Source: Frigoribacterium faeni (GTDB lineage: Bacteria; Actinomycetota; Actinomycetes; Actinomycetales; Microbacteriaceae). Taken from it: DNA of 64,000 nucleotides. This document shows positions 7,348 through 27,000 of this stretch, one piece after another; positions within the stretch are counted from its first letter, which is position 1; each line of letters opens with the position of its first letter. The DNA is taken from positions 62,001-126,000 of the forward strand of contig NZ_JAAOYW010000002.1 of NCBI RefSeq assembly GCF_011761235.1, given 5' to 3'. A program made the translations under genes and the position numbers. A model generated the notes under the pieces. That model saw only the letters and a program-made list of their open reading frames with translations. It was not told where the DNA came from and made no database searches.

Positions 7348-7415
7348 GGGCGCCGAGTGGTCAGGAACGGTCTCCCGAGGCCCGGGGAAGGACCGTCGCC
7401 GACCACTCGGCGCCC
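7348..7415. repeat. Intergenic inverted repeat, GAGTGGTC family, copy 1
   Basis: Perfect 15-bp outer arms, GGGCGCCGAGTGGTC (7348-7362) and GACCACTCGGCGCCC (7401-7415). Inner complementary parts are ACGGTC/GACCGT and TCCC/GGGA. It sits between the convergent lyase and jetC genes. A second copy with the same GAGTGGTC...GACCACTC core is at 55102-55161. It may act as a bidirectional terminator or be a mobile repeat. Confidence 0.8.
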
Positions 7416-7421
7416 GGCAGG

Positions 7422-10400
7422 TCAGCCGAGCAGGGCCGGGTCGAGGCCGTGGCGCTCGACCTCCATCGCCTCGCGGATGGTGAGCGGCCAGATGCGCGAC
7501 AGCTCGGGCCGGGTCGGGTCGCTCGAGATGTACGCGACGCTCTCGACGTGCTGCTCGAACGCGGCCACCTTGTCGCGGGGCGCGCCCACGATCAGCTGGA
7601 ACCCGAGCGACCGCAGGGCCGACAGCGCCCGGCCGGTGTACTCGGTGTCGGCCTTGACGAAGCCCTCGTCGAGCACGATCGGGGCGTAGGTCGGCACCCG
7701 GTCGGTGCCGTCGCCCAGCCGGAACCGCAGGGCGGCCCCGAGCACGAACGCGATCAGCTCCTGCCCCTCGCCGCCCGACTTGCCCGCGACGCCCTCGTGC
7801 ACGATCTGCGTGCCGTCGGCCCGCGTCTCGATCGCCCGGAACTGCACGTGCTCGCGCGCGTCGAGCACCCGGCGGCGCCAGGCGTCGCCGATCTTCGAGC
7901 GCTCCTCGAGGTGGGCGAGGTCGCGGCGGAGGCGGAGGAACCGGCGCTCCACCTCGGCAGGGTCGCGCGACCCGGCCGGTGCGCCTGCCTCGCCCGCGCC
8001 TCCGTCGGCCCGGCCGTCGCCGATGTGCTCCCGCAGGGTGCGGCGGAAGTCGGCGAGGTCGCTGTTCGACACGGGCCGCGGCTCGATGTCGAGCGTCGAG
8101 CCCTCGCGGAACTCGATCGCCCGCAGCGCCTCCGAGATGGGGCGGACGCCGCGCCGGATGACGTGGCCGTCCTCCTCGATCTGCACGAGCAGCGCCCGCA
8201 GGCTGTCGCCCATGTCGCTGCCGGCCTTCTCGAGCCAGCGCTGCTTCGCGTGCGGCAGGTCGTCCTCGACGAGCCCGCGGTGGATCGCGAGCACGGCGGG
8301 CAGGCTGTCGATGGTCGCGTCGACGCCCGCGTTGCGGTCGAGCTCGAGGTAGCGCGCGAAGACGAGCTCGAGGGTCAGCTCGTGCTGGCCGCGCTCGCGG
8401 TCGTGCGCGTCGACCTGCGACCGCAGCTGGGCCGCGGCCTCGCGCCGGGTGCGCTCGACGTCGGCCGCCTCGCGGGGCGCGGTGAACGGCAGCGACGCGA
8501 GCAGGGCGCGCTCGTCGTCGTCGAGCGGATCGGCGCCGTGCAGGGCGTCGCTGGAGGCGTCCTCGATGTCGACGAGCGTCGCGTGCGTCCGCTCGAGCTG
8601 GTCGAGCAGCTGCTGCACCTCGGCGCCGCGCCGCACGGCCTCGAGCCGGGCCTCGTCGTGCTCGGCGGCCGCGGCCTGCAGCGTCGCCACCTCGGGGCGC
8701 TCGAGGGCGACCCGGTCGAGCTGCGCCCGCAGGTCGTCGAGCCGGGCGCGGGCGGGGGCGGCGTCGACGTCCGACCAGACGGTCCCGGCGGCGCGCTCGA
8801 CGGTCTCGACGACGCGGCGGCGGGCGCCCGCGACGGTCTCGGCGGCGTCCCACTCGGCCCGGGCCGCGTCGAGCGACCGGGTCAGCTCGGCGATCTCGTC
8901 GGCGAGCTCGGCGACGCGGGCGGCGTTGTCGAGGCCGATCCACGAGCGGAGGCGGCGGTCGTCCTTCGTGACGCGACGACCACCTCCGGTGCGGAGGCCG
9001 GAGCGGGTCACGGCGCCGCGCGCTCCCTCGGGCAGCGGGGAGTCGAGGTCGTCGGCGCCCTCGACGCAGAGCACGCTGCGCTCGGCGACGAGCTCGTCGT
9101 GCAGCCAGCCGCGGAACGGGCTGGCCTCGTCGAGCACGAGCATCGAGGGCACGGTGCGCGCCACGGGCGTCAGCCGCGCGGTCAGCCCGGGCGTCGCGGG
9201 CACGAGCGTGACGCGCCCGCGCATGTCCTCGTCGTCGACGAAGCGGCGCACGGCCGCGAAGTCGTCGTCGTCCACGAGGAGGTGCGTGGCCAGGTCGCCG
9301 AGGACCCGCTCGACCGCGGTGGCCCAGTCGCGGTGCTCGGGCGCGACCTCCATCAGCTCGCCCGCGTAGGGCAGCCGCGACACGGGCACGCCCGTGCCGT
9401 CGGCGATGCGGCGGCGACGTTCGACGGCCTCGTCGGGCACGTTGCTGCGGCGGCGCTCGAACGACTCCTTCTGCCGCTGGCGCTCGCCCACCGCGCGCCG
9501 GGTCTCGGCGATGCGGGCGGCGAGGTCGCCGCGCAGCTCGTCGTGCCCACGGCGGGCCGCCGCCTCGTCCCGGGCCAGCGACGCGGCCCGGTCACGGAGC
9601 GCCGCGAGCTCGTCGGCCGTCGTCGGCACGGCCTCGCCGACGCCCTCGAGCGGCTCGGCGAAGCGGCGGTGCTGCGCCTCGACCCGCGCGAGCGCGTCCT
9701 CGGCCCAGCGCACCTGCTCGCGGAGCGAGTGCGAGGGGTCGCCCCCGAGGTCGGCGATCTGCGCCAGGGCCTGCTCGCGGGCCCGGAGCGCGACCTCCTC
9801 GTCGTCGGCCGCGCGCCTCCTCGTCTCGGTCGCCTCGCGCTTGGCGGCCTGCACGCGGTCGACCTCGCCGCCCACCCAGTCGCCGACCTTCTCGGCCAGC
9901 CAGACGCGCAGCCGGCTGGGCTCGCCGCCCGCCTCGTCGCCCTCGGCCAGCAGGCGGCGCTTCGCGGTCGCGTCGTCGCCCGCGGCCCGCCACTGCTCGG
10001 CCAGGGCGGGCACGGGCTCGAGCACCTCGAGCTTCTTGCGGGTCGTCTCGAAGACGTCGTAGAGCTGCGACGCCTCGCGGTAGGTGGCGAGCGTCGTCTC
10101 CCAGCGCGACAGCGCCTTGGGCTGCGTCAGCACGAACTGCGTGAAGAGCTCGTCGATCGAGAACACGCCCTTGGACGCCTGCGCCCGGCGCAGCAGCGTC
10201 AGCGCCTTGAGCTGCGACTCGTCGCTGCCGCCGATGCCGAGCACGCCGCAGAGCCGCACTCTCAGTTCGGGCTGCGAGTACGTGACGAGGTCGTGCGCCG
10301 GGTCGACGAGCCGGCTGAGCGAGCTCTTCGTCAGCGGCGAGCTGCTCGTCGGGTCGCGACGCGCCTCGGTGAGGCGGCTGAGGTCGAAGCGGCCGCGGAC

Positions 10401-10976
10401 GAGCAGGTAGACCGTCGACTGCGTGACCTCGTCCTGGCTGGCGGTCTCGGGGCCGATCCACGCGAGGCGCACGGCCGTGAGGGTCTCGCCGAGCTCGGTG
10501 CTCCAGGTGACGGCCGACCCGCTCGCGAACGCCTCGCCGAGCGGCCGCAGGAACCGCGTCGTCGTCTGGTCGGTGCCCGCGTCGCGCACCTCGTCGGTCT
10601 TGCCGCGGGCGTAGCTGTAGACGGTGCGCTCGGAGCGCTGGCGGGAGTCGTCGCGGGCGGCGCGGTTGAACTCCTGCGGGTTCGGCATCACGACGGCGCT
10701 CATGGCGTCGAGCACCGTCGACTTGCCGCGCCCGGTGGGGCCGAGGATCGCGATGCCGCCCCGGCCGACCGGCATGCGGTGCAGGCCCGAGTAGCTGCCC
10801 CAGTTGAGCAGCTGCACCAGCTCGATGCGGTACTGGCCCGAGTGGAACATGCCGAGGTCGGGCGCCGCGTCGGGCTCGACGTCGACGTCGAGGGCGGGGG
10901 TGAGGGGCTCGGCCTCGCGCGGCTCGGCGGGGGCCGAGGAGGCGGTGGTCGCGTCGGCGGGGGAGGCGGTGGTCAT
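7422..10976 (-). CDS. jetC: Wadjet JetC: SMC/MukB-like ATPase
   Basis: 1184 residues. It is the SMC-type motor of a Wadjet (JetABCD/MksBEFG) complex, which extrudes DNA loops and, in complete systems, leads to cleavage of small plasmids. Walker A is GPTGRGKST (79-87). The two long coiled-coil arms (about 350-560 and 720-860) flank a hinge-like globular region near 560-720. The C-terminal head has the signature GKSGGEGQEL (1065-1074) and Walker B VLDEG (1101-1105), so ATPase residues look intact. Its ATG overlaps the jetB stop (ATGA). In canonical loci jetD, the DUF3322/DUF2220 toprim nuclease, follows. Here the next 95 bp hold only inverted repeats and then a convergent metabolic gene. Confidence 0.92.
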   Translation of the reverse strand: MTTASPADATTASSAPAEPREAEPLTPALDVDVEPDAAPDLGMFHSGQYRIELVQLLNWGSYSGLHRMPVGRGGIAILGPTGRGKSTVLDAMSAVVMPNPQEFNRAARDDSRQRSERTVYSYARGKTDEVRDAGTDQTTTRFLRPLGEAFASGSAVTWSTELGETLTAVRLAWIGPETASQDEVTQSTVYLLVRGRFDLSRLTEARRDPTSSSPLTKSSLSRLVDPAHDLVTYSQPELRVRLCGVLGIGGSDESQLKALTLLRRAQASKGVFSIDELFTQFVLTQPKALSRWETTLATYREASQLYDVFETTRKKLEVLEPVPALAEQWRAAGDDATAKRRLLAEGDEAGGEPSRLRVWLAEKVGDWVGGEVDRVQAAKREATETRRRAADDEEVALRAREQALAQIADLGGDPSHSLREQVRWAEDALARVEAQHRRFAEPLEGVGEAVPTTADELAALRDRAASLARDEAAARRGHDELRGDLAARIAETRRAVGERQRQKESFERRRSNVPDEAVERRRRIADGTGVPVSRLPYAGELMEVAPEHRDWATAVERVLGDLATHLLVDDDDFAAVRRFVDDEDMRGRVTLVPATPGLTARLTPVARTVPSMLVLDEASPFRGWLHDELVAERSVLCVEGADDLDSPLPEGARGAVTRSGLRTGGGRRVTKDDRRLRSWIGLDNAARVAELADEIAELTRSLDAARAEWDAAETVAGARRRVVETVERAAGTVWSDVDAAPARARLDDLRAQLDRVALERPEVATLQAAAAEHDEARLEAVRRGAEVQQLLDQLERTHATLVDIEDASSDALHGADPLDDDERALLASLPFTAPREAADVERTRREAAAQLRSQVDAHDRERGQHELTLELVFARYLELDRNAGVDATIDSLPAVLAIHRGLVEDDLPHAKQRWLEKAGSDMGDSLRALLVQIEEDGHVIRRGVRPISEALRAIEFREGSTLDIEPRPVSNSDLADFRRTLREHIGDGRADGGAGEAGAPAGSRDPAEVERRFLRLRRDLAHLEERSKIGDAWRRRVLDAREHVQFRAIETRADGTQIVHEGVAGKSGGEGQELIAFVLGAALRFRLGDGTDRVPTYAPIVLDEGFVKADTEYTGRALSALRSLGFQLIVGAPRDKVAAFEQHVESVAYISSDPTRPELSRIWPLTIREAMEVERHGLDPALLG

Positions 10977-11860
10977 GCCTGGTCTGCTCCTGTGTCGCGG
11001 GGGAGGTCGAGCGGGAGGTCGAGGTCGAGCGGGACCGCGGTGGGGTCGTCCGCCGCGTCGGCGGGATCGCCCGGAGCGTCGTCCGGGGCGTCGCCTGCCG
11101 CGTCGGCCGAGTCGTGCGCGTCGTCGTCCGCGGCGTCGGCGGCCGCGTCGTCCTCCGTCTCGCCCAGCTCGTCGTCGGGGTCGAGCACGGCGTCCGCACC
11201 GTCGGCCGTGCCCGCGGCCGCGTCGAGGTAGAGCCGCTCGAGGTGCAGCAGCTGCTCGGGCCGCACCAGCGGCACGATCGCCGGCGAGACGGTGAACAGC
11301 TGCGGGTCGTCGGGCTCGGCCTCGAGCAGGTCGCGGGCGACCATCGCGGCGATCGCGGCGTCGACGCGGCGGTCGGCACGGATCTCGTCCTGGGCCGTGT
11401 CGTCGTGGAACCGGCCGAGGAACTCGGCGACCTGGTCGCGCGAGACGACCACGGGCTCGTCGTCGCCGTCGGTGTACGCGTGCTCGCGACGCAGGAACAC
11501 GAGCAGCAGGGACGCGTCGCGCGACAGCGGCTTCTCGCGGCGCAGCAGGACGGGCGCGTCGTCGCCGCCCGACTGCCGCTTGAACGCGACCTCGTGGGCG
11601 TGGTCGACCTCGAGGTCGAGGAACAGCTCGGCGAGGCGGGCGCGGATGTCGGCTTCGTGCGCCAGGAGCCCGGCCCACGCCTCCTTCTGCCTCGACCGCG
11701 AGACGAAACGGTGGGTCAGCAGGGTGACCAGTGCGCGGCGTCCGGCCAGGGGGAGCGTGCCGGGGGCGGCGAGGAGGGCGGCGGCGTCGGCCGCCGTGTC
11801 GGCCTCGGCCGTGGTGGCGCCGTCGGCGTCGCGGGTCGTGTCGGCGGGGGCGTCGGTCAT
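10973..11860 (-). CDS. jetB: Wadjet JetB: DUF4194 KITE-like subunit
   Basis: 295 residues. JetB is the KITE-type winged-helix subunit that bridges kleisin and SMC in Wadjet complexes. DUF4194 features are LPLAGRRALVTLLTHRFVSRSRQKEAWAGLLAHE, IRARLAELFLDLEVDHAHEVAF and the winged part LLRREKPLSRDASLLLVFLRRE, ending with LVRPEQLLHLERLY. After about residue 225 there is a long acidic, Asp/Ala-rich low-complexity tail (DDELGETEDDAAADAADDD) longer than the core needs, probably a disordered linker. The ATG overlaps the jetA stop, and its stop overlaps the jetC start, so the three subunits are made in a coupled way. Confidence 0.9.
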   Translation of the reverse strand: MTDAPADTTRDADGATTAEADTAADAAALLAAPGTLPLAGRRALVTLLTHRFVSRSRQKEAWAGLLAHEADIRARLAELFLDLEVDHAHEVAFKRQSGGDDAPVLLRREKPLSRDASLLLVFLRREHAYTDGDDEPVVVSRDQVAEFLGRFHDDTAQDEIRADRRVDAAIAAMVARDLLEAEPDDPQLFTVSPAIVPLVRPEQLLHLERLYLDAAAGTADGADAVLDPDDELGETEDDAAADAADDDAHDSADAAGDAPDDAPGDPADAADDPTAVPLDLDLPLDLPRDTGADQA

Positions 11861-13506
11861 GCGGGGTCTCCCTGGAGGTGCAGCGGGGGCGCGTCGGCGT
11901 CGGCCCGGTCGTCGGCCGGGTCGCGCTCGTCGGCCGGGGCACGGCCGTCCGCGTCGGCGCGGGCGAAGACGAGTCGGGGCAGCACGACCTCGCGGCCCGC
12001 TCCTGCCCCGTCGGCGGTCAACACGACCGACTCCCGGTCGTCGGTGACGACGCCCCGGTCGACGGCGAGGTCGAGCATGCTCAGCACGAGGCCGAGGCGG
12101 CGGAACTCGGGCTCGGTCGCGAGCCAGACGTCGGTGCTCGTCACCTCGCCGCGGTCGGCCAGCAGCCGGTCGACGGTGCCGGCGACCGCCGCGGGGCTGG
12201 TGCCTGCGGTGAGGCGGAGGGCGACGCGGTCGGCCTCGGGCAGGGCGAGGTCGCCCTCGGTCACCTGGACGTCGACGGTGGGGCGGCCGCGTTCGGTCCA
12301 GGGCTGCAGCTGGGTCAGGTCGACGGCGTCGAGCGGGCCGAGCCCGAGCACGTCCTCGGCGAGGACGGCCGCGCCGGGACGCCGCTCGACCCAGGCGGCG
12401 CCCGCGTCGAGGGCCCGGTCGGCGAGGGTGAGCAGGCGCTGGTGCCGGTCGGTGCTCGACCGGCTGAGGAACCGTCGCAGCGACGACGTCCAGCGGCCGT
12501 ACGTCTCTTGTACCGCCTGCTCCTCGGCGAGCAGCGACGAGATGAGCTGTTCGAGCTGCGTCCGCTGCCGCTCGCCGAGCTGCGCGGCGGCGTCCGGCTG
12601 GGCGAGGATCGCGTCGATGTCCGCGCGCATCTGGTCGAGCTCGCGCGACGACAGCATCTGCGCGAAGCCGCGGTAGGCGCGCCCCTCCGGCGTCTGCTCG
12701 AGCAGGTCGTTCTCGCGCAGGTACTGGTCGACGAGCGCGCCCTTGCCGACGCCCTCGGCGGCCGCACGGCGGGCGACCTCGCGGTGCCGCTGCTCGACCA
12801 TCGCGCTCAGCTGGCGGAAGTCGGCCGGCAGCGACGCCGTGAGGCGCACGACCTCGCTCAGCTGGCGGCCCAGGGCGTCGAGCGGCACGGGCTCGGTGCC
12901 GTGCTGCTCGATGCGGTCGCGTCGTCGCTGCAGCTCGGCCATCTGCTCGTCGATGCGGCCCAGCTGCGACTCGACGCTCGGGTCGGCGAGGCCCGCGAGC
13001 TGCCGGATCGCGTTCGCGATGCTGCCGAGCCGTGCCTCGGAGACCGCGTTGTCGGCCTCGACGAGCTCGCGCACCACGCGCAGGGCGCGGAGCGCGTGCG
13101 GCGAGAGCCGGTACTGCGCGCGGCCTGCGCGACCGTCGCCCGCGTCGCGCGCGGCGTCCGGGTCGGCCGAGGAGGCGCGGGTACGGACCAGCCACCCGGC
13201 GTCGACCCAGCCCCGGCAGTAATCGGCGGGGGGCGTGCGCGTCTCGGGTGCCGGGTCGTCCGGGGGCGACGGGACCGGCGCCTCCTCGGCGTGCTCGGCC
13301 GCGGTGCGCTCCAGGGCGTCGGCGACCCGCTGGTGGAACCAGTCGGCCGACACCGGGCCCTCGGCCTGCTCGAGGTGCTCGGAGAAGAGGGGGACGACCC
13401 AGCGGCTGTTCGTGCTGCGGAGGAGGGTCCAGGTCGGGTCGGACTCCCACACGACGCGCACGTCGTCGCGGGTCAGGGGGCCGCCGGGGGCTGCTGCCTC
13501 GTCCAC
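11857..13506 (-). CDS. jetA: Wadjet JetA: DUF3375 kleisin-like subunit
   Basis: 549 residues. JetA (DUF3375) is the kleisin-type subunit that closes the JetC ring. The N-terminus DVRVVWESDPTWTLLRSTNSRWVVPLFSEH is diagnostic for DUF3375. A helical part follows (LRALRVVRELVEADN..., RLGSIANAIRQLAGL, QMAELQRRRDRIE). The later GFAQMLSSRELDQMRADIDAIL and a C-terminal winged-helix region follow in the family order. Inserts after residues 75 and 105 are acidic and Pro-rich. GTG 13506 follows AGGAGG by about 12 nt. It is the first gene of a jetABC operon, with a possible -10 (TATCGT, 13557-13562, minus strand) upstream. No jetD precedes it: the upstream gene belongs to the sugar operon. Confidence 0.9.
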   Translation of the reverse strand: MDEAAAPGGPLTRDDVRVVWESDPTWTLLRSTNSRWVVPLFSEHLEQAEGPVSADWFHQRVADALERTAAEHAEEAPVPSPPDDPAPETRTPPADYCRGWVDAGWLVRTRASSADPDAARDAGDGRAGRAQYRLSPHALRALRVVRELVEADNAVSEARLGSIANAIRQLAGLADPSVESQLGRIDEQMAELQRRRDRIEQHGTEPVPLDALGRQLSEVVRLTASLPADFRQLSAMVEQRHREVARRAAAEGVGKGALVDQYLRENDLLEQTPEGRAYRGFAQMLSSRELDQMRADIDAILAQPDAAAQLGERQRTQLEQLISSLLAEEQAVQETYGRWTSSLRRFLSRSSTDRHQRLLTLADRALDAGAAWVERRPGAAVLAEDVLGLGPLDAVDLTQLQPWTERGRPTVDVQVTEGDLALPEADRVALRLTAGTSPAAVAGTVDRLLADRGEVTSTDVWLATEPEFRRLGLVLSMLDLAVDRGVVTDDRESVVLTADGAGAGREVVLPRLVFARADADGRAPADERDPADDRADADAPPLHLQGDPA

Positions 13507-24075: not shown

Positions 24076-27000
24076 TACATCGACGACGACACCGTGGTCA
24101 CGAGCCCGACCGACCTGACGACCTGGGCGGCGTGCGAGTGGGCGTTCCTGCGGCGGCTCGACGCGAAGCTGGGGCGGGTCGAGGCCGTCGCCGACGAGGC
24201 GGACGCGATGCTCGACCGCACGGCGCGGCTGGGCGACGACCACGAGGTCCGGTTCCTCGAGACCCTGCGCGCGACGCACGACGTCGTCGAGTTCGAGCGG
24301 CCGTCGCGCGACGAGTACCCGGCGGCGGCCCGTGCCGCGGCCGACGCCATGCGCGCCGGCGCCGACGTGCTCTACCAGGCGACCTTCTTCGACGGCTCGT
24401 TCATCGGGTTCAGCGACTTCCTCGTCCGCAACGACGCCGGCGAGTACGAGGTCCACGACACGAAGCTCGCGCGGCACGCCAAGATCCCGGCCCTGCTGCA
24501 GCTCGCCGCCTACGCCGAGCAGATCGAGGCCCTCGGCGTCCCGGTGGGCTCGCAGGTGCACCTCGTCCTCGGCGACGGGTCGTGGTCCACCCACGACCTC
24601 GCCGACGTCGCTCCCGTCTTCCGGGCCCAGCAGGCGCAGCTCCGGGCGGTCGTCGCCGAGCGGCTCCGGGCTGACGAGCCCCTCGCCTGGGGGGCACCCG
24701 GCGTCACGGCGTGCGGTCGGTGCTCGCTGTGCTCGGCCGAGGTCGAGCGGCACCGCGACCTCGTGCTCGTCGCCGGGCTCACGCTGGCCCAGCGCGCGCG
24801 GCTGAACGACGCCGGGGTGCACAGCATCGACGAGCTCGCGACCAGCACCGGCAGCGTGCCGGGGGTGGGCGGCGCTGCCCTCGCGCGCCTCCGGGGCCAG
24901 GCCCAGCTGCAGCTCGCCGGCGAGCACGGCCGACCCGAGGTGCGCGTCGTCGACGCCGGGGCGCTCGCGGCGATCCCGGCGCCCGATCCCGGCGACGTCT
25001 TCTTCGACTTCGAGGGCGACCCGCTGTACACCGAGGGCGACAGCAGCGTCTGGGGCCTCGACTACCTGTTCGGCCTCGTCGACCAGGAGGCGCGGTTCAC
25101 CGCGTTCTGGGCGCACGACTACCGAGAAGAACGCCGAGCGCTCGTCGAGTTCCTCGCGTTCGTCCGCGAGCGTCGCGCCGCCCACCCGGGCATGCACGTC
25201 TACCACTACGCCTCCTACGAGCGCACGCACCTGCTCTCGCTGGCGGCCCGCCACGGCGTCGGCGAGGACGAGGTCGACGACCTGCTGCGCGACGGCGTGC
25301 TCGTCGACCTGTACCCGGTCGTGCGCAAGGCGCTGATCGTCGGCTCGCGCAGCTACTCGATCAAGGCGCTCGAGCCGCTCTACATGGGCCCCGACCTCCG
25401 CGACGGCGACGGCGTCGTGAACGCCGCCGACAGCATCACGGCCTACGTCGAGGCCGTCACGGCGCTGAGGGCGGGCGACCCGTCGGGCCAGGCGCGGCTC
25501 GAGCAGGTGGCCGACTACAACGAGTACGACTGCCGGTCGACCCTGCGCCTGCGCGACTGGCTGCTCGGCTTCGCCGAGTCGGGCGACGTCGGCGCCTCGG
25601 ACGACCTGTTGCCGCTCGTCGACGACGAGCGGGTCGCGGCCGAGCCCGACCCCGTGCACGTCGAGCTCACCGCCCTGCTCGCCGACGTCGACCCGCTCGA
25701 CCGCGACGCCGACCAGACGGCGTTGGCGCTCGCCGCCGCCGCGATCGACTACCACCGACGTGAGGCCAAGACCTTCTGGCAGGAGCACTTCGACCGACTG
25801 CGCGGGCCGGTCGACGAGTGGGGCGACACCCGGGACGTGTTCGTCGTCGAGCGCGCCGAGGTCGTCCGCGACTGGGACAAGCTGCCGCGGGCGCGCACGC
25901 TGTCGCGCGACCTGCGCCTCGTCGGCTCGCTCGGCCCGGGCAGCCGGCTCAGCGCGGGCGGGCCCTCGCCGCACCTCGTCTACGAGGCCCCGCTGCCGCC
26001 GACCGTCCGGGCCGCCGGTCCCGGGCTGCGCGGGGCGAGCCCTCGGGCGACCGTGCTCGACGTCGACGCGTTCGGCGACAGCGTCGTGCTGCTCGTCAAG
26101 GAGTCCCTGGCGAGCGGCGGCGAGCCGCACCACCAGTTCCCGCTCGCGCTCACGCCGGCGGCGCCGCCGCGGGCCGCGCCCCAGCCCGAGGCCATCTCGG
26201 AGTGGGGCCGGGCGGTGCTCGACGAGCTGCCCGAGATGCTGCCCGACCCGGCGCTCGACCTGCTGCGGCGCGTTCCGCCTCGCGGGGGAGTCGCGCCGGT
26301 CGTCGGCGACGACACGGTCTCGGCCGTGACCTGCACGCTGCTCGGCCTCGACCGGTCGTACCTCGCCGTGCAGGGGCCTCCCGGCACGGGCAAGACCTTC
26401 GTCGGGTCGGGCGTCGTCGCCCGCCTCGTGACGGAGCACGGCTGGCGTGTCGGCGTGGTCGGGCAGTCGCACGCCGTCGTCGAGAACTTCCTCGAGGCGG
26501 TCGTCGCCAAGGGCGTCGACCCCGAGCGCGTGGTCAAGGTGCCGAAGAAGGGCACCGACGCCGACGTGCTCGAGGCCGCCGGGTGGACCCCGGTCAAGGA
26601 CGGCTCCGCCGTGGCCGGGTTCCTCGGCGGGCGCGGCGAGACCGGAGGCGTCGTCGGCGGCACGGCGTGGACCTTCGCCAACGGCGACACGATCCCGCGT
26701 CGCTCGCTCGACCTGCTTGTCGTCGACGAGGCCGGGCAGTTCTCGCTGGCGCCGACGATCGCGTCCTCGGTGGCCGCGCGGCGCCTGCTGCTGCTCGGCG
26801 ACCCGCAGCAGCTGCCGCAGGTGAGCCAGGGCTCTCACCCCGAGCCCGTCGACGAGTCGGCGCTCGGCTGGGTCGCCGCCGGCCACGACGTGCTGCCCGC
26901 CGAGCTGGGGTACTTCCTCTGGCGCACCTACCGCATGCACCCGGCGGTCACCGCCCCCGTGTCGCGGCTCTCGTACGCCGGCCGGCTCGAGTCGCGCGCC

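What the first reader, a model, noticed from the sequence alone, without database searches (positions are those of the whole stretch)
7422..13506. Wadjet-type jetABC operon without the nuclease gene jetD
The three condensin-like subunits are complete and translationally coupled. JetC keeps Walker A (GPTGRGKST), signature (GKSGGEGQEL) and Walker B (VLDEG). Canonical Wadjet/MksBEFG loci carry jetD (DUF3322/DUF2220) directly after jetC. Here jetC is followed by inverted repeats and a convergent citryl-CoA-lyase-like gene, and jetA is preceded by a sugar operon. None of the other complete genes in this window looks like JetD. Either JetD acts from another locus, a different nuclease is recruited, or this is an SMC complex used for chromosome organisation instead of plasmid cleavage.
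Basis: partly seen in the sequence, partly recalled or inferred. Interest (0 to 1): 0.8.

Follow-up and report, generated by a model that had tools for sequence, protein, structure and literature searches.

The report
Plasmid-defence motor without its nuclease
This bacterium carries a DNA-handling motor built like a plasmid-destroying defence complex, but the DNA-cutting part is missing and the motor has been kept, in its whole genus as sampled and in many related lineages, which suggests that a weapon has been turned into a tool for the cell's own DNA.

Summary
jetA, jetB and jetC are intact and overlap by 4 bp each, and no jetD is found in the genome (PF09983 and PF11795). The absence is not a local deletion. 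The same nuclease-free operon's jetC is in 16 of 16 Frigoribacterium genomes searched. JetD_C occurs in 2 of those 16, each beside a second, 32%-identical JetC. In Leifsonia 11 of 28 genomes have the ortholog. One, L. shinshuensis DP-L11, has jetD between jetC and the flank that follows jetC in its ten nuclease-free relatives. Kibdelosporangium, more distant, also has jetABCD. JetD and JetC distances correlate (r = 0.93), so jetD is probably ancestral and was lost. In 297 genomes of the order, 73 of 135 JetC loci lack an adjacent JetD_C; 60 of the 73 were fetched, and 0 of 60 showed a JetD (one ends 138 bases past jetC). A 153-row JetC tree needs 17 changes of JetD state. Best reading: a Wadjet-derived, MksBEF-like SMC complex kept under purifying selection beside the ordinary SMC. 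A chromosomal role is inferred, not shown.

The parts
11857..13506 (-). jetA (kleisin, DUF3375; MksF-like), 549 aa, GTG start after an AGGAGGGG-type ribosome site read by eye
   Evidence: PADLOC JetA1 PDLC00463 858.8 bits; Pfam PF11855 E 9.5e-72; similar to solved JetA chains such as 8as8 and 8dk1, E 1.6e-15 to 1.4e-13
10973..11860 (-). jetB (KITE, DUF4194; MksE-like), 295 aa; ATG overlaps the jetA stop by 4 bp; long acidic tails
   Evidence: PADLOC JetB1 PDLC00495 407.2 bits; Pfam PF13835; a profile of 14 JetB including this one matches solved JetB chains, E 6.7e-16 to 5.3e-15
7422..10976 (-). jetC (SMC ATPase; MksB-like), 1184 aa; ATG overlaps the jetB stop by 4 bp
   Evidence: PADLOC JetC1 PDLC00518 716.3 bits; Pfam SbcC_Walker_B and AAA_29
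10716..10742 (-). JetC Walker A, GPTGRGKST
   Evidence: all nine residues invariant in the 17 orthologs aligned
7755..7784 (-). JetC ABC signature, GKSGGEGQEL
   Evidence: SGG present in all 153 JetC rows, the longer SGGE in 87 of 108 without and 13 of 45 with JetD
7662..7676 (-). JetC Walker B, VLDEG
7349..7414 (.). inverted repeat between jetC and the convergent citrate-synthase-type gene, where jetD would begin; probable bidirectional terminator (inference)
   Evidence: Fold -68.4 kcal/mol, z -5.2, 0 of 200 shuffles as low; no T-tract terminator found by the scan

Best explanation
This is a Wadjet type I-derived SMC complex (JetA kleisin, JetB KITE, JetC ATPase) that has lost its nuclease JetD and been kept as a core chromosomal complex, in effect an MksBEF-like second condensin. 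SHOWN: JetABC is complete; no JetD was found in the genome; all 16 Frigoribacterium searched have the ortholog; the nearest lineages that have jetD have it directly after jetC; JetD and JetC distances correlate strongly; jetABC without jetD is under purifying selection among close relatives, and JetC loci without JetD are common in the order. INFERRED: the complex still loads on DNA and moves or extrudes loops by ATP hydrolysis, as JetABC and MukBEF-type complexes do. Without JetD it cannot convert arrest on a small circle into a double-strand cut. It therefore now serves the cell's own DNA (loop organisation, segregation or repair) alongside the canonical SMC, or at most holds foreign circles without cutting them.
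For: No JetD in the own genome. JetC ortholog in 16 of 16 Frigoribacterium, the 15 others at 74-93% identity; JetD_C in 2 of 16, both next to a second JetC of 32% identity. Leifsonia: ortholog in 11 of 28, JetD_C in 2 of 28, of which G218 has it next to the ortholog. In blastn, the flank behind the L. shinshuensis jetD follows jetC in all ten nuclease-free Leifsonia: within 42 bases of the jetC stop in eight, with about 1.5 kb of extra DNA in one and a later-starting match in one. Kibdelosporangium x2 has jetABCD. JetD-JetC distance correlation r = 0.933, 0 of 5000 permutations. The L. shinshuensis JetD is nearest to the Kibdelosporangium JetD (43%), as is its JetC among JetD-bearing rows (47%). 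dN/dS of jetC 0.05-0.14 in ten of eleven close pairs, one of which includes the JetD-bearing L. shinshuensis, and 0.24 in the other; against the closest relatives this is like neighbouring genes. Walker A matches by pattern in 107 of 108 nuclease-free JetC, Walker B in 108 of 108. Canonical SMC also in the genome (855 bits). Order sample: 73 of 135 JetC loci without adjacent JetD_C; 0 of 60 of these with JetD at E <= 1. Nuclease-free jetABC beside a tRNA-ligase gene (LeuRS by eye) in 10 loci of 5 genera, as expected of an inherited chromosomal site. Precedent: a review says that P. [quoted passage not shown]
Against: There is no direct evidence of a chromosomal role or of activity. The best-studied actinobacterial relative, C. 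[quoted passage not shown] The JetB N-terminal aromatic-acidic motif, which may be the JetD-contact motif, is retained in 79 of 99 nuclease-free loci, so some partner may still bind there. Between Frigoribacterium subclades jetC dN is well above that of two neighbouring genes (0.195 against 0.073-0.076), which is not ordinary housekeeping behaviour. The ortholog was not found in 17 of 28 Leifsonia, so it is dispensable there. L. shinshuensis, nested among nuclease-free rows, could have regained jetD rather than kept it.
Confidence: 0.6

Rival explanations
1. JetABC still defends against plasmids without cutting: it compacts or silences small circles, as proposed for eukaryotic Smc5/6 on viral circles.
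For: JetABC is the circle-sensing part of Wadjet, and the review describes Smc5/6-type compaction of circular DNA (PMC10586767, passages). Two Frigoribacterium carry a second, JetD-bearing system as well as this complex, so defence pressure exists in the genus.
Against: All four subunits, JetD included, were needed to suppress plasmid transformation in B. subtilis, according to the review. Presence in 16 of 16 genomes and shared flanks across genera look unlike the scattered, long-branched JetD-bearing group.
Confidence: 0.2
2. A different nuclease has replaced JetD and acts with JetABC in trans.
For: The JetB N-terminal motif is kept in most nuclease-free loci (79 of 99), which would fit a continuing partner. 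An RNase_H_2 (PF13482) protein lies head-to-head with jetA in three Frigoribacterium and about 3 kb away in two more. A NERD (nuclease-related) protein lies upstream of jetA in 3 of 3 loci of genus g63, with a weaker relative at one Frigoribacterium locus.
Against: The RNase_H_2 gene was matched in 5 of the 152 jet loci searched, and in the window it lies 10.6 kb from jetA; the NERD gene in 4 of 153 sequences, the window included, and not in the window. Flanks held were about 1 to 10 kb, so more distant copies were not seen. No neighbour family shown reaches more than 5 genera. In the window and 8 other Frigoribacterium the JetB motif itself is gone.
Confidence: 0.13
3. A decaying remnant: jetD was lost first and jetABC is on its way out.
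For: Within Leifsonia 17 of 28 genomes lack the ortholog. JetB tails and the JetB motif vary freely in Frigoribacterium.
Against: No stop inside jetC in any of the 16 Frigoribacterium and 11 Leifsonia orthologs. dN/dS of jetC 0.05-0.14 in ten of eleven close pairs. Nuclease-free rows of one genus group together in many genera.
Confidence: 0.05
4. JetD is supplied from another locus in the same genome.
For: Two Frigoribacterium (G001, G011) have a JetD elsewhere.
Against: Those JetD genes have their own JetC and JetB and a JetA match beside them. 14 of 16 Frigoribacterium, the window's genome included, have no JetD_C match; PF11795 was also absent from the window's genome.
Confidence: 0.02

Closest known systems
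Wadjet type I / MksBEFG / EptABCD (JetABCD)
   Same: Same three subunits, same order A-B-C, best PADLOC matches all named JetA1, JetB1 and JetC1; the nearest jetD-bearing relatives have jetD directly after jetC
   Different: The nuclease JetD/MksG was not found in the operon or the genome, so the defining effector is missing
MksBEF of Pseudomonas aeruginosa
   Same: [quoted passage not shown] PMC7485682, search listing and start of abstract)
   Different: A different bacterial phylum; no function measured here. The comparison is not uniform: another paper draws an mksFEBG operon, with mksG, for P. aeruginosa UCBPP-PA14 (PMC10123090, passage). In the window's clade jetD-bearing relatives and the empty site are seen directly
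C. glutamicum MksBEFG
   Same: Actinobacterial, coexists with Smc-ScpAB
   Different: Has MksG and acts on plasmids, not detectably on chromosome folding (PMC7083940 and PMC10123090, passages)
Smc-ScpAB
   Same: Coiled-coil SMC ATPase with kleisin and KITE partners
   Different: A separate canonical SMC gene is in the genome (G000:C1:634596-638195, 855 bits), whereas this JetC scores 49 bits against that model, cut-off 567

Membership tests
Wadjet type I (JetABCD) | JetA, JetB and JetC of type I, adjacent and in this order | tested here: met
Wadjet type I (JetABCD) | JetD nuclease (PF11795 + PF09983) in the operon | tested here: not met
   A hairpin and a citrate-synthase-type gene follow jetC; no PF09983 or PF11795 in the genome
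Wadjet type I (JetABCD) | Restriction of small circular plasmids by cleavage | not testable with these tools
   Needs transformation and cleavage assays
MksBEF-like (nuclease-free SMC complex) | SMC-kleisin-KITE operon of the MukBEF/Wadjet superfamily without MksG/JetD | tested here: met
MksBEF-like (nuclease-free SMC complex) | Intact ATPase motifs | tested here: met
MksBEF-like (nuclease-free SMC complex) | Role in chromosome organisation or segregation | not testable with these tools
   Needs deletion, Hi-C and microscopy
MksBEF-like (nuclease-free SMC complex) | Stable vertical inheritance rather than sporadic transfer | tested here: inconclusive
   For: 16 of 16 genomes of the genus; nuclease-free rows of one genus mostly group together; tRNA-ligase flank shared in 10 loci of 5 genera of family f9. 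Open: no species tree was built, and 17 of 28 Leifsonia lack it

The most novel reading that the evidence does not exclude
Plasmid-cutting Wadjet complexes have repeatedly (at least 14 changes of JetD state forced by well-supported branches of a FastTree tree) been converted within one bacterial order into nuclease-free, inherited SMC complexes that act as a second condensin, so the move from immunity to chromosome maintenance can be watched between sister species.
Probability: 0.45. Interest if true: 0.8.

Novelty: new variant of a known kind. Interest (0 to 1): 0.62.

Why it matters
[quoted passage not shown] Here the step can be looked at: closely related bacteria with and without jetD (L. 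shinshuensis and its sister row L048, JetC branch distance about 0.06; genus g48, rows L111 and L088; genus g115, rows L180 and L121) and whole genera that keep only the motor. That gives natural pairs for testing what Wadjet motors do on chromosomes. It also warns that calling Wadjet defence from JetA, JetB or JetC alone would miscount: 61 of 123 JetC-bearing genomes in the order sample had no JetD_C match.

Tried and rejected
JetD in trans: not supported by genome-wide searches. A jetD pseudogene behind jetC: tblastn of the L. shinshuensis JetD against the loci of 10 Leifsonia and 15 Frigoribacterium gave no internal remnant. The weak Leifsonia hits (L048, L040, L047, L045, L046) cover only the last residues of the ORF (382-418), where it runs into the convergent neighbour; one weak Frigoribacterium hit (E 0.065, about 4.4 kb behind jetC) looks like chance. 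In genus g115 a very weak hit (E 0.29, 22% over 111 columns) lies behind jetC of L121 and could be chance or a worn remnant. A general locus-linked replacement nuclease; only the 22 widest neighbour families were printed, and most were not identified. Two span bacterial families and are transport-type genes (siderophore/ABC type; BPD_transp_1).

JetB N-terminal motif as a test of lost JetD docking: inconclusive, because it is kept in 79 of 99 nuclease-free and 35 of 44 JetD-bearing loci. Its equation with the IFDR motif named in the review is my inference. Some rows called 'lost' are ORFs read past the true start, and a few 'hits' are other W/F positions. dN/dS between Frigoribacterium subclades is hard to read: synonymous change stays low (dS 0.34-0.47) while jetC dN is high.

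Gain versus loss: parsimony with free gains needs 17 changes, losses only need 30. I favour mostly losses because JetD and JetC distances correlate, but JetC and JetD have the same nearest neighbour in only 21 of 45 loci, so single regains are possible, L. shinshuensis included. Both trees carry warnings about long branches that meet. 14 of the 60 re-examined order loci had no JetA by my profile and 9 of these no JetB (all in family f12); they are counted as JetC loci without JetD, not as proven JetABC. One of the 60, L120, ends 138 bases behind jetC, so its missing jetD rests on the genome search alone. Of the 73 order loci without JetD_C, one is the window's own, 3 (G092, G154, G177) had been fetched in the family sample, 60 were fetched later, and 9 were never fetched; one of those, G356, starts 102 bases from a contig end. 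The searches scored only the best 2 (order) or 3 (family) first-look candidates of a genome, so further JetC copies may be missed. Left out of the trees: L039 (part of the own locus), the small loci L001-L021, and the named duplicates among L051-L071 (only L065 and L066 used). Literature: searches for Frigoribacterium + Wadjet and MksB + Microbacteriaceae returned nothing; a search for phrases such as 'loss of JetD' returned only the review.

Full report
What is there. On the - strand, jetA (13506-11857), jetB (11860-10973) and jetC (10976-7422) form one operon with 4-bp overlaps at both junctions. Best PADLOC models are JetA1 (858.8 bits), JetB1 (407.2) and JetC1 (716.3); Pfam gives DUF3375, DUF4194, SbcC_Walker_B and AAA_29. 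JetA alone, and a JetB profile, match solved Wadjet chains. ATPase motifs are intact. Behind jetC come a strong hairpin and a convergent citrate-synthase-type gene. No JetD_C and no DUF3322 domain is found in the 3.2-Mb genome, which is 99.96% complete. A canonical SMC gene is present elsewhere (855 bits).

Who else has it. Names come from contigs of equal length: the window's genus is Frigoribacterium and genus g55 is Leifsonia. The JetC ortholog is in 16 of 16 Frigoribacterium, the 15 others at 74-93% identity. JetD_C is in 2 of these 16, and each lies beside a second JetC, 32% identical, with a JetB and a JetA match: a separate Wadjet, though in G001 its JetA ORF is only 353 aa against 525 in G011. 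In a sample of 199 genomes of the family, 42 have a JetC match and 20 of these 42 have a JetD_C match, one of them only a fragment, G142. The close ortholog (over 1000 bits) occurs there only in the 4 Frigoribacterium and one Leifsonia. In Leifsonia 11 of 28 have it.

How jetD went. In one Leifsonia (G218; L. shinshuensis DP-L11, locus L049/L062) a jetD with both JetD domains (PF09983 107.4 bits, PF11795 70.4 bits) sits between jetC and a convergent gene (an isochorismatase by eye, no call). In the other ten Leifsonia that same flank follows jetC: within 42 bases in eight; one has about 1.5 kb of extra DNA and one a later-starting match. No internal JetD remnant was found there. In genera g48 and g115 the JetC C-terminal tails of the nuclease-free rows differ from those of their JetD-bearing sisters just at the end, as expected if the DNA change took the jetC end with it (inference). 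Two Kibdelosporangium with 46% identical JetC have jetD directly after jetC. JetD and JetC distances correlate over 45 loci (r = 0.933, 0 of 5000 permutations as high), and the L. shinshuensis JetD is nearest to the Kibdelosporangium JetD, as is its JetC among JetD-bearing rows. JetD was therefore probably part of this lineage's operon and was lost. A regain in L. shinshuensis, which is nested among nuclease-free rows, is not excluded.

How common it is. In 297 genomes of the order, 123 have JetC at E <= 1e-30, in 135 loci (a second piece of one gene, G345, not counted; at most 2 candidates per genome were scored). JetD_C lies within 3.5 kb in 62 and is missing in 73; 61 of the 123 genomes have no JetD_C match. 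I fetched 60 of the 73: my own JetD profile found 0 of 60 on the same strand near jetC at E <= 1 (in one, L120, only 138 bases behind jetC are held), and 46 of 60 had both JetA and JetB by profile. As a positive control, I fetched 20 of the 62 JetD-bearing loci, and the same profile found JetD in 20 of 20. In a JetC tree of 73 rows (48 without, 25 with JetD) JetD state changes 8 times, at least 6 forced by starred branches. With 153 rows (108 without, 45 with) it changes 17 times, at least 14 forced, against a mean of 39 for shuffled labels (FastTree). If JetD could only be lost, 30 losses are needed. The sampling of rows is uneven and both trees warn of long branches that meet, so these are counts on this set, not rates.

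Does it still work? No stop codon interrupts JetC in the 16 Frigoribacterium or 11 Leifsonia orthologs. dN/dS of jetC is 0.05-0.14 in ten of eleven close pairs and 0.24 in the remaining one (window against L025); jetA 0.06-0.42; jetB 0-0.55, with its acidic tails. Against its closest relatives jetC evolves like neighbouring genes; between Frigoribacterium subclades it evolves faster. Walker A matches by pattern in 107 of 108 nuclease-free JetC, Walker B in 108 of 108, and SGG in all 153 rows. Some nuclease-free loci keep the same chromosomal neighbours across genera: a class I tRNA-ligase gene (PF08264; LeuRS by eye) within 2.6 kb of jetC in 10 loci of 5 genera, and a DegV gene in 9 of these. 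No neighbouring family shown reaches more than 5 genera. Two nuclease-like neighbours are local: RNase_H_2 at 5 Frigoribacterium loci and NERD at 3 loci of genus g63 and, more weakly, 1 of Frigoribacterium.

Mechanism. JetABC is the motor and sensor of Wadjet, and JetD the cutter (PMC10586767, passages). Without JetD, the most likely activity is ATP-driven DNA loading and loop formation without cleavage. Presence throughout a genus, conserved sites and preserved ATPase motifs point to a routine task. The best precedent is P. [quoted passage not shown] Against this, C. [quoted passage not shown] Chromosomal function here is therefore inferred (about 0.6), non-cutting plasmid control is possible (0.2), and an unlinked substitute nuclease less likely (0.13).

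A loose end. JetB proteins carry a short aromatic-acidic motif near the N-terminus (LFEGD, LWPGD, AFGDR types), possibly the counterpart of the JetD-contacting IFDR motif mentioned in the review (inference). It is kept in 79 of 99 nuclease-free loci and 35 of 44 JetD-bearing ones, and is lost in 9 of 16 Frigoribacterium including the window. It either has a second role or binds another partner in most nuclease-free lineages.

Verdict. The gene set fails the Wadjet definition, because the nuclease was sought and not found, and meets the gene content of a nuclease-free MksBEF-type complex. It is a new variant of a known kind. Its interest lies in repeated loss of the weapon with retention of the motor, and in sister-species pairs that make this testable.

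Noticed in passing
window 24094-26001 (+): 636-aa protein with an RNase_H_2 (PF13482) domain, RecB-like nuclease type by recall. It lies head-to-head with jetA in three Frigoribacterium (L022, L025, L026) and about 3 kb away in two more (L028, L029); in the window a sugar-uptake operon lies between.
   Followed up: partly
L073, L074, L090 (genus g63); L026:2546-2959: A NERD-domain (nuclease-related) protein lies upstream of nuclease-free jetABC in 3 of 3 loci of genus g63; a weaker relative lies near jetA in one Frigoribacterium.
   Followed up: partly
window 7349-7414: Very stable inverted repeat between the convergent jetC and citrate-synthase-type genes; exact arms with similar spacing were found in only one other genome among the fetched loci, G011 (L005, L023, L071).
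   Followed up: partly
L037 and L038 (G001 F. endophyticum, G011 Frigoribacterium sp. PhB116): Two Frigoribacterium carry a second, distant Wadjet with its own JetD besides the nuclease-free complex; the JetA ORF of the one in G001 is short (353 aa).
   Followed up: partly
JetB N-termini, 143 jet loci: Conserved aromatic-acidic motif ([FW]..GD type) ahead of the first helix, kept in most loci whether or not JetD is present, and lost in 9 of 16 Frigoribacterium.
   Followed up: partly
L149-L158, L176-L179 (family f12): Nuclease-free JetC loci in which my JetA profile finds no kleisin; in L150 the order looks like jetB, an unknown 535-aa ORF, jetC. Possibly a divergent kleisin.
   Followed up: no
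L127-L132, L134, L138, L139, L141 (family f9): Nuclease-free jetABC lies beside a class I tRNA-ligase gene in 5 genera, in 9 of 10 loci with a DegV gene as well, a conserved chromosomal site.
   Followed up: partly
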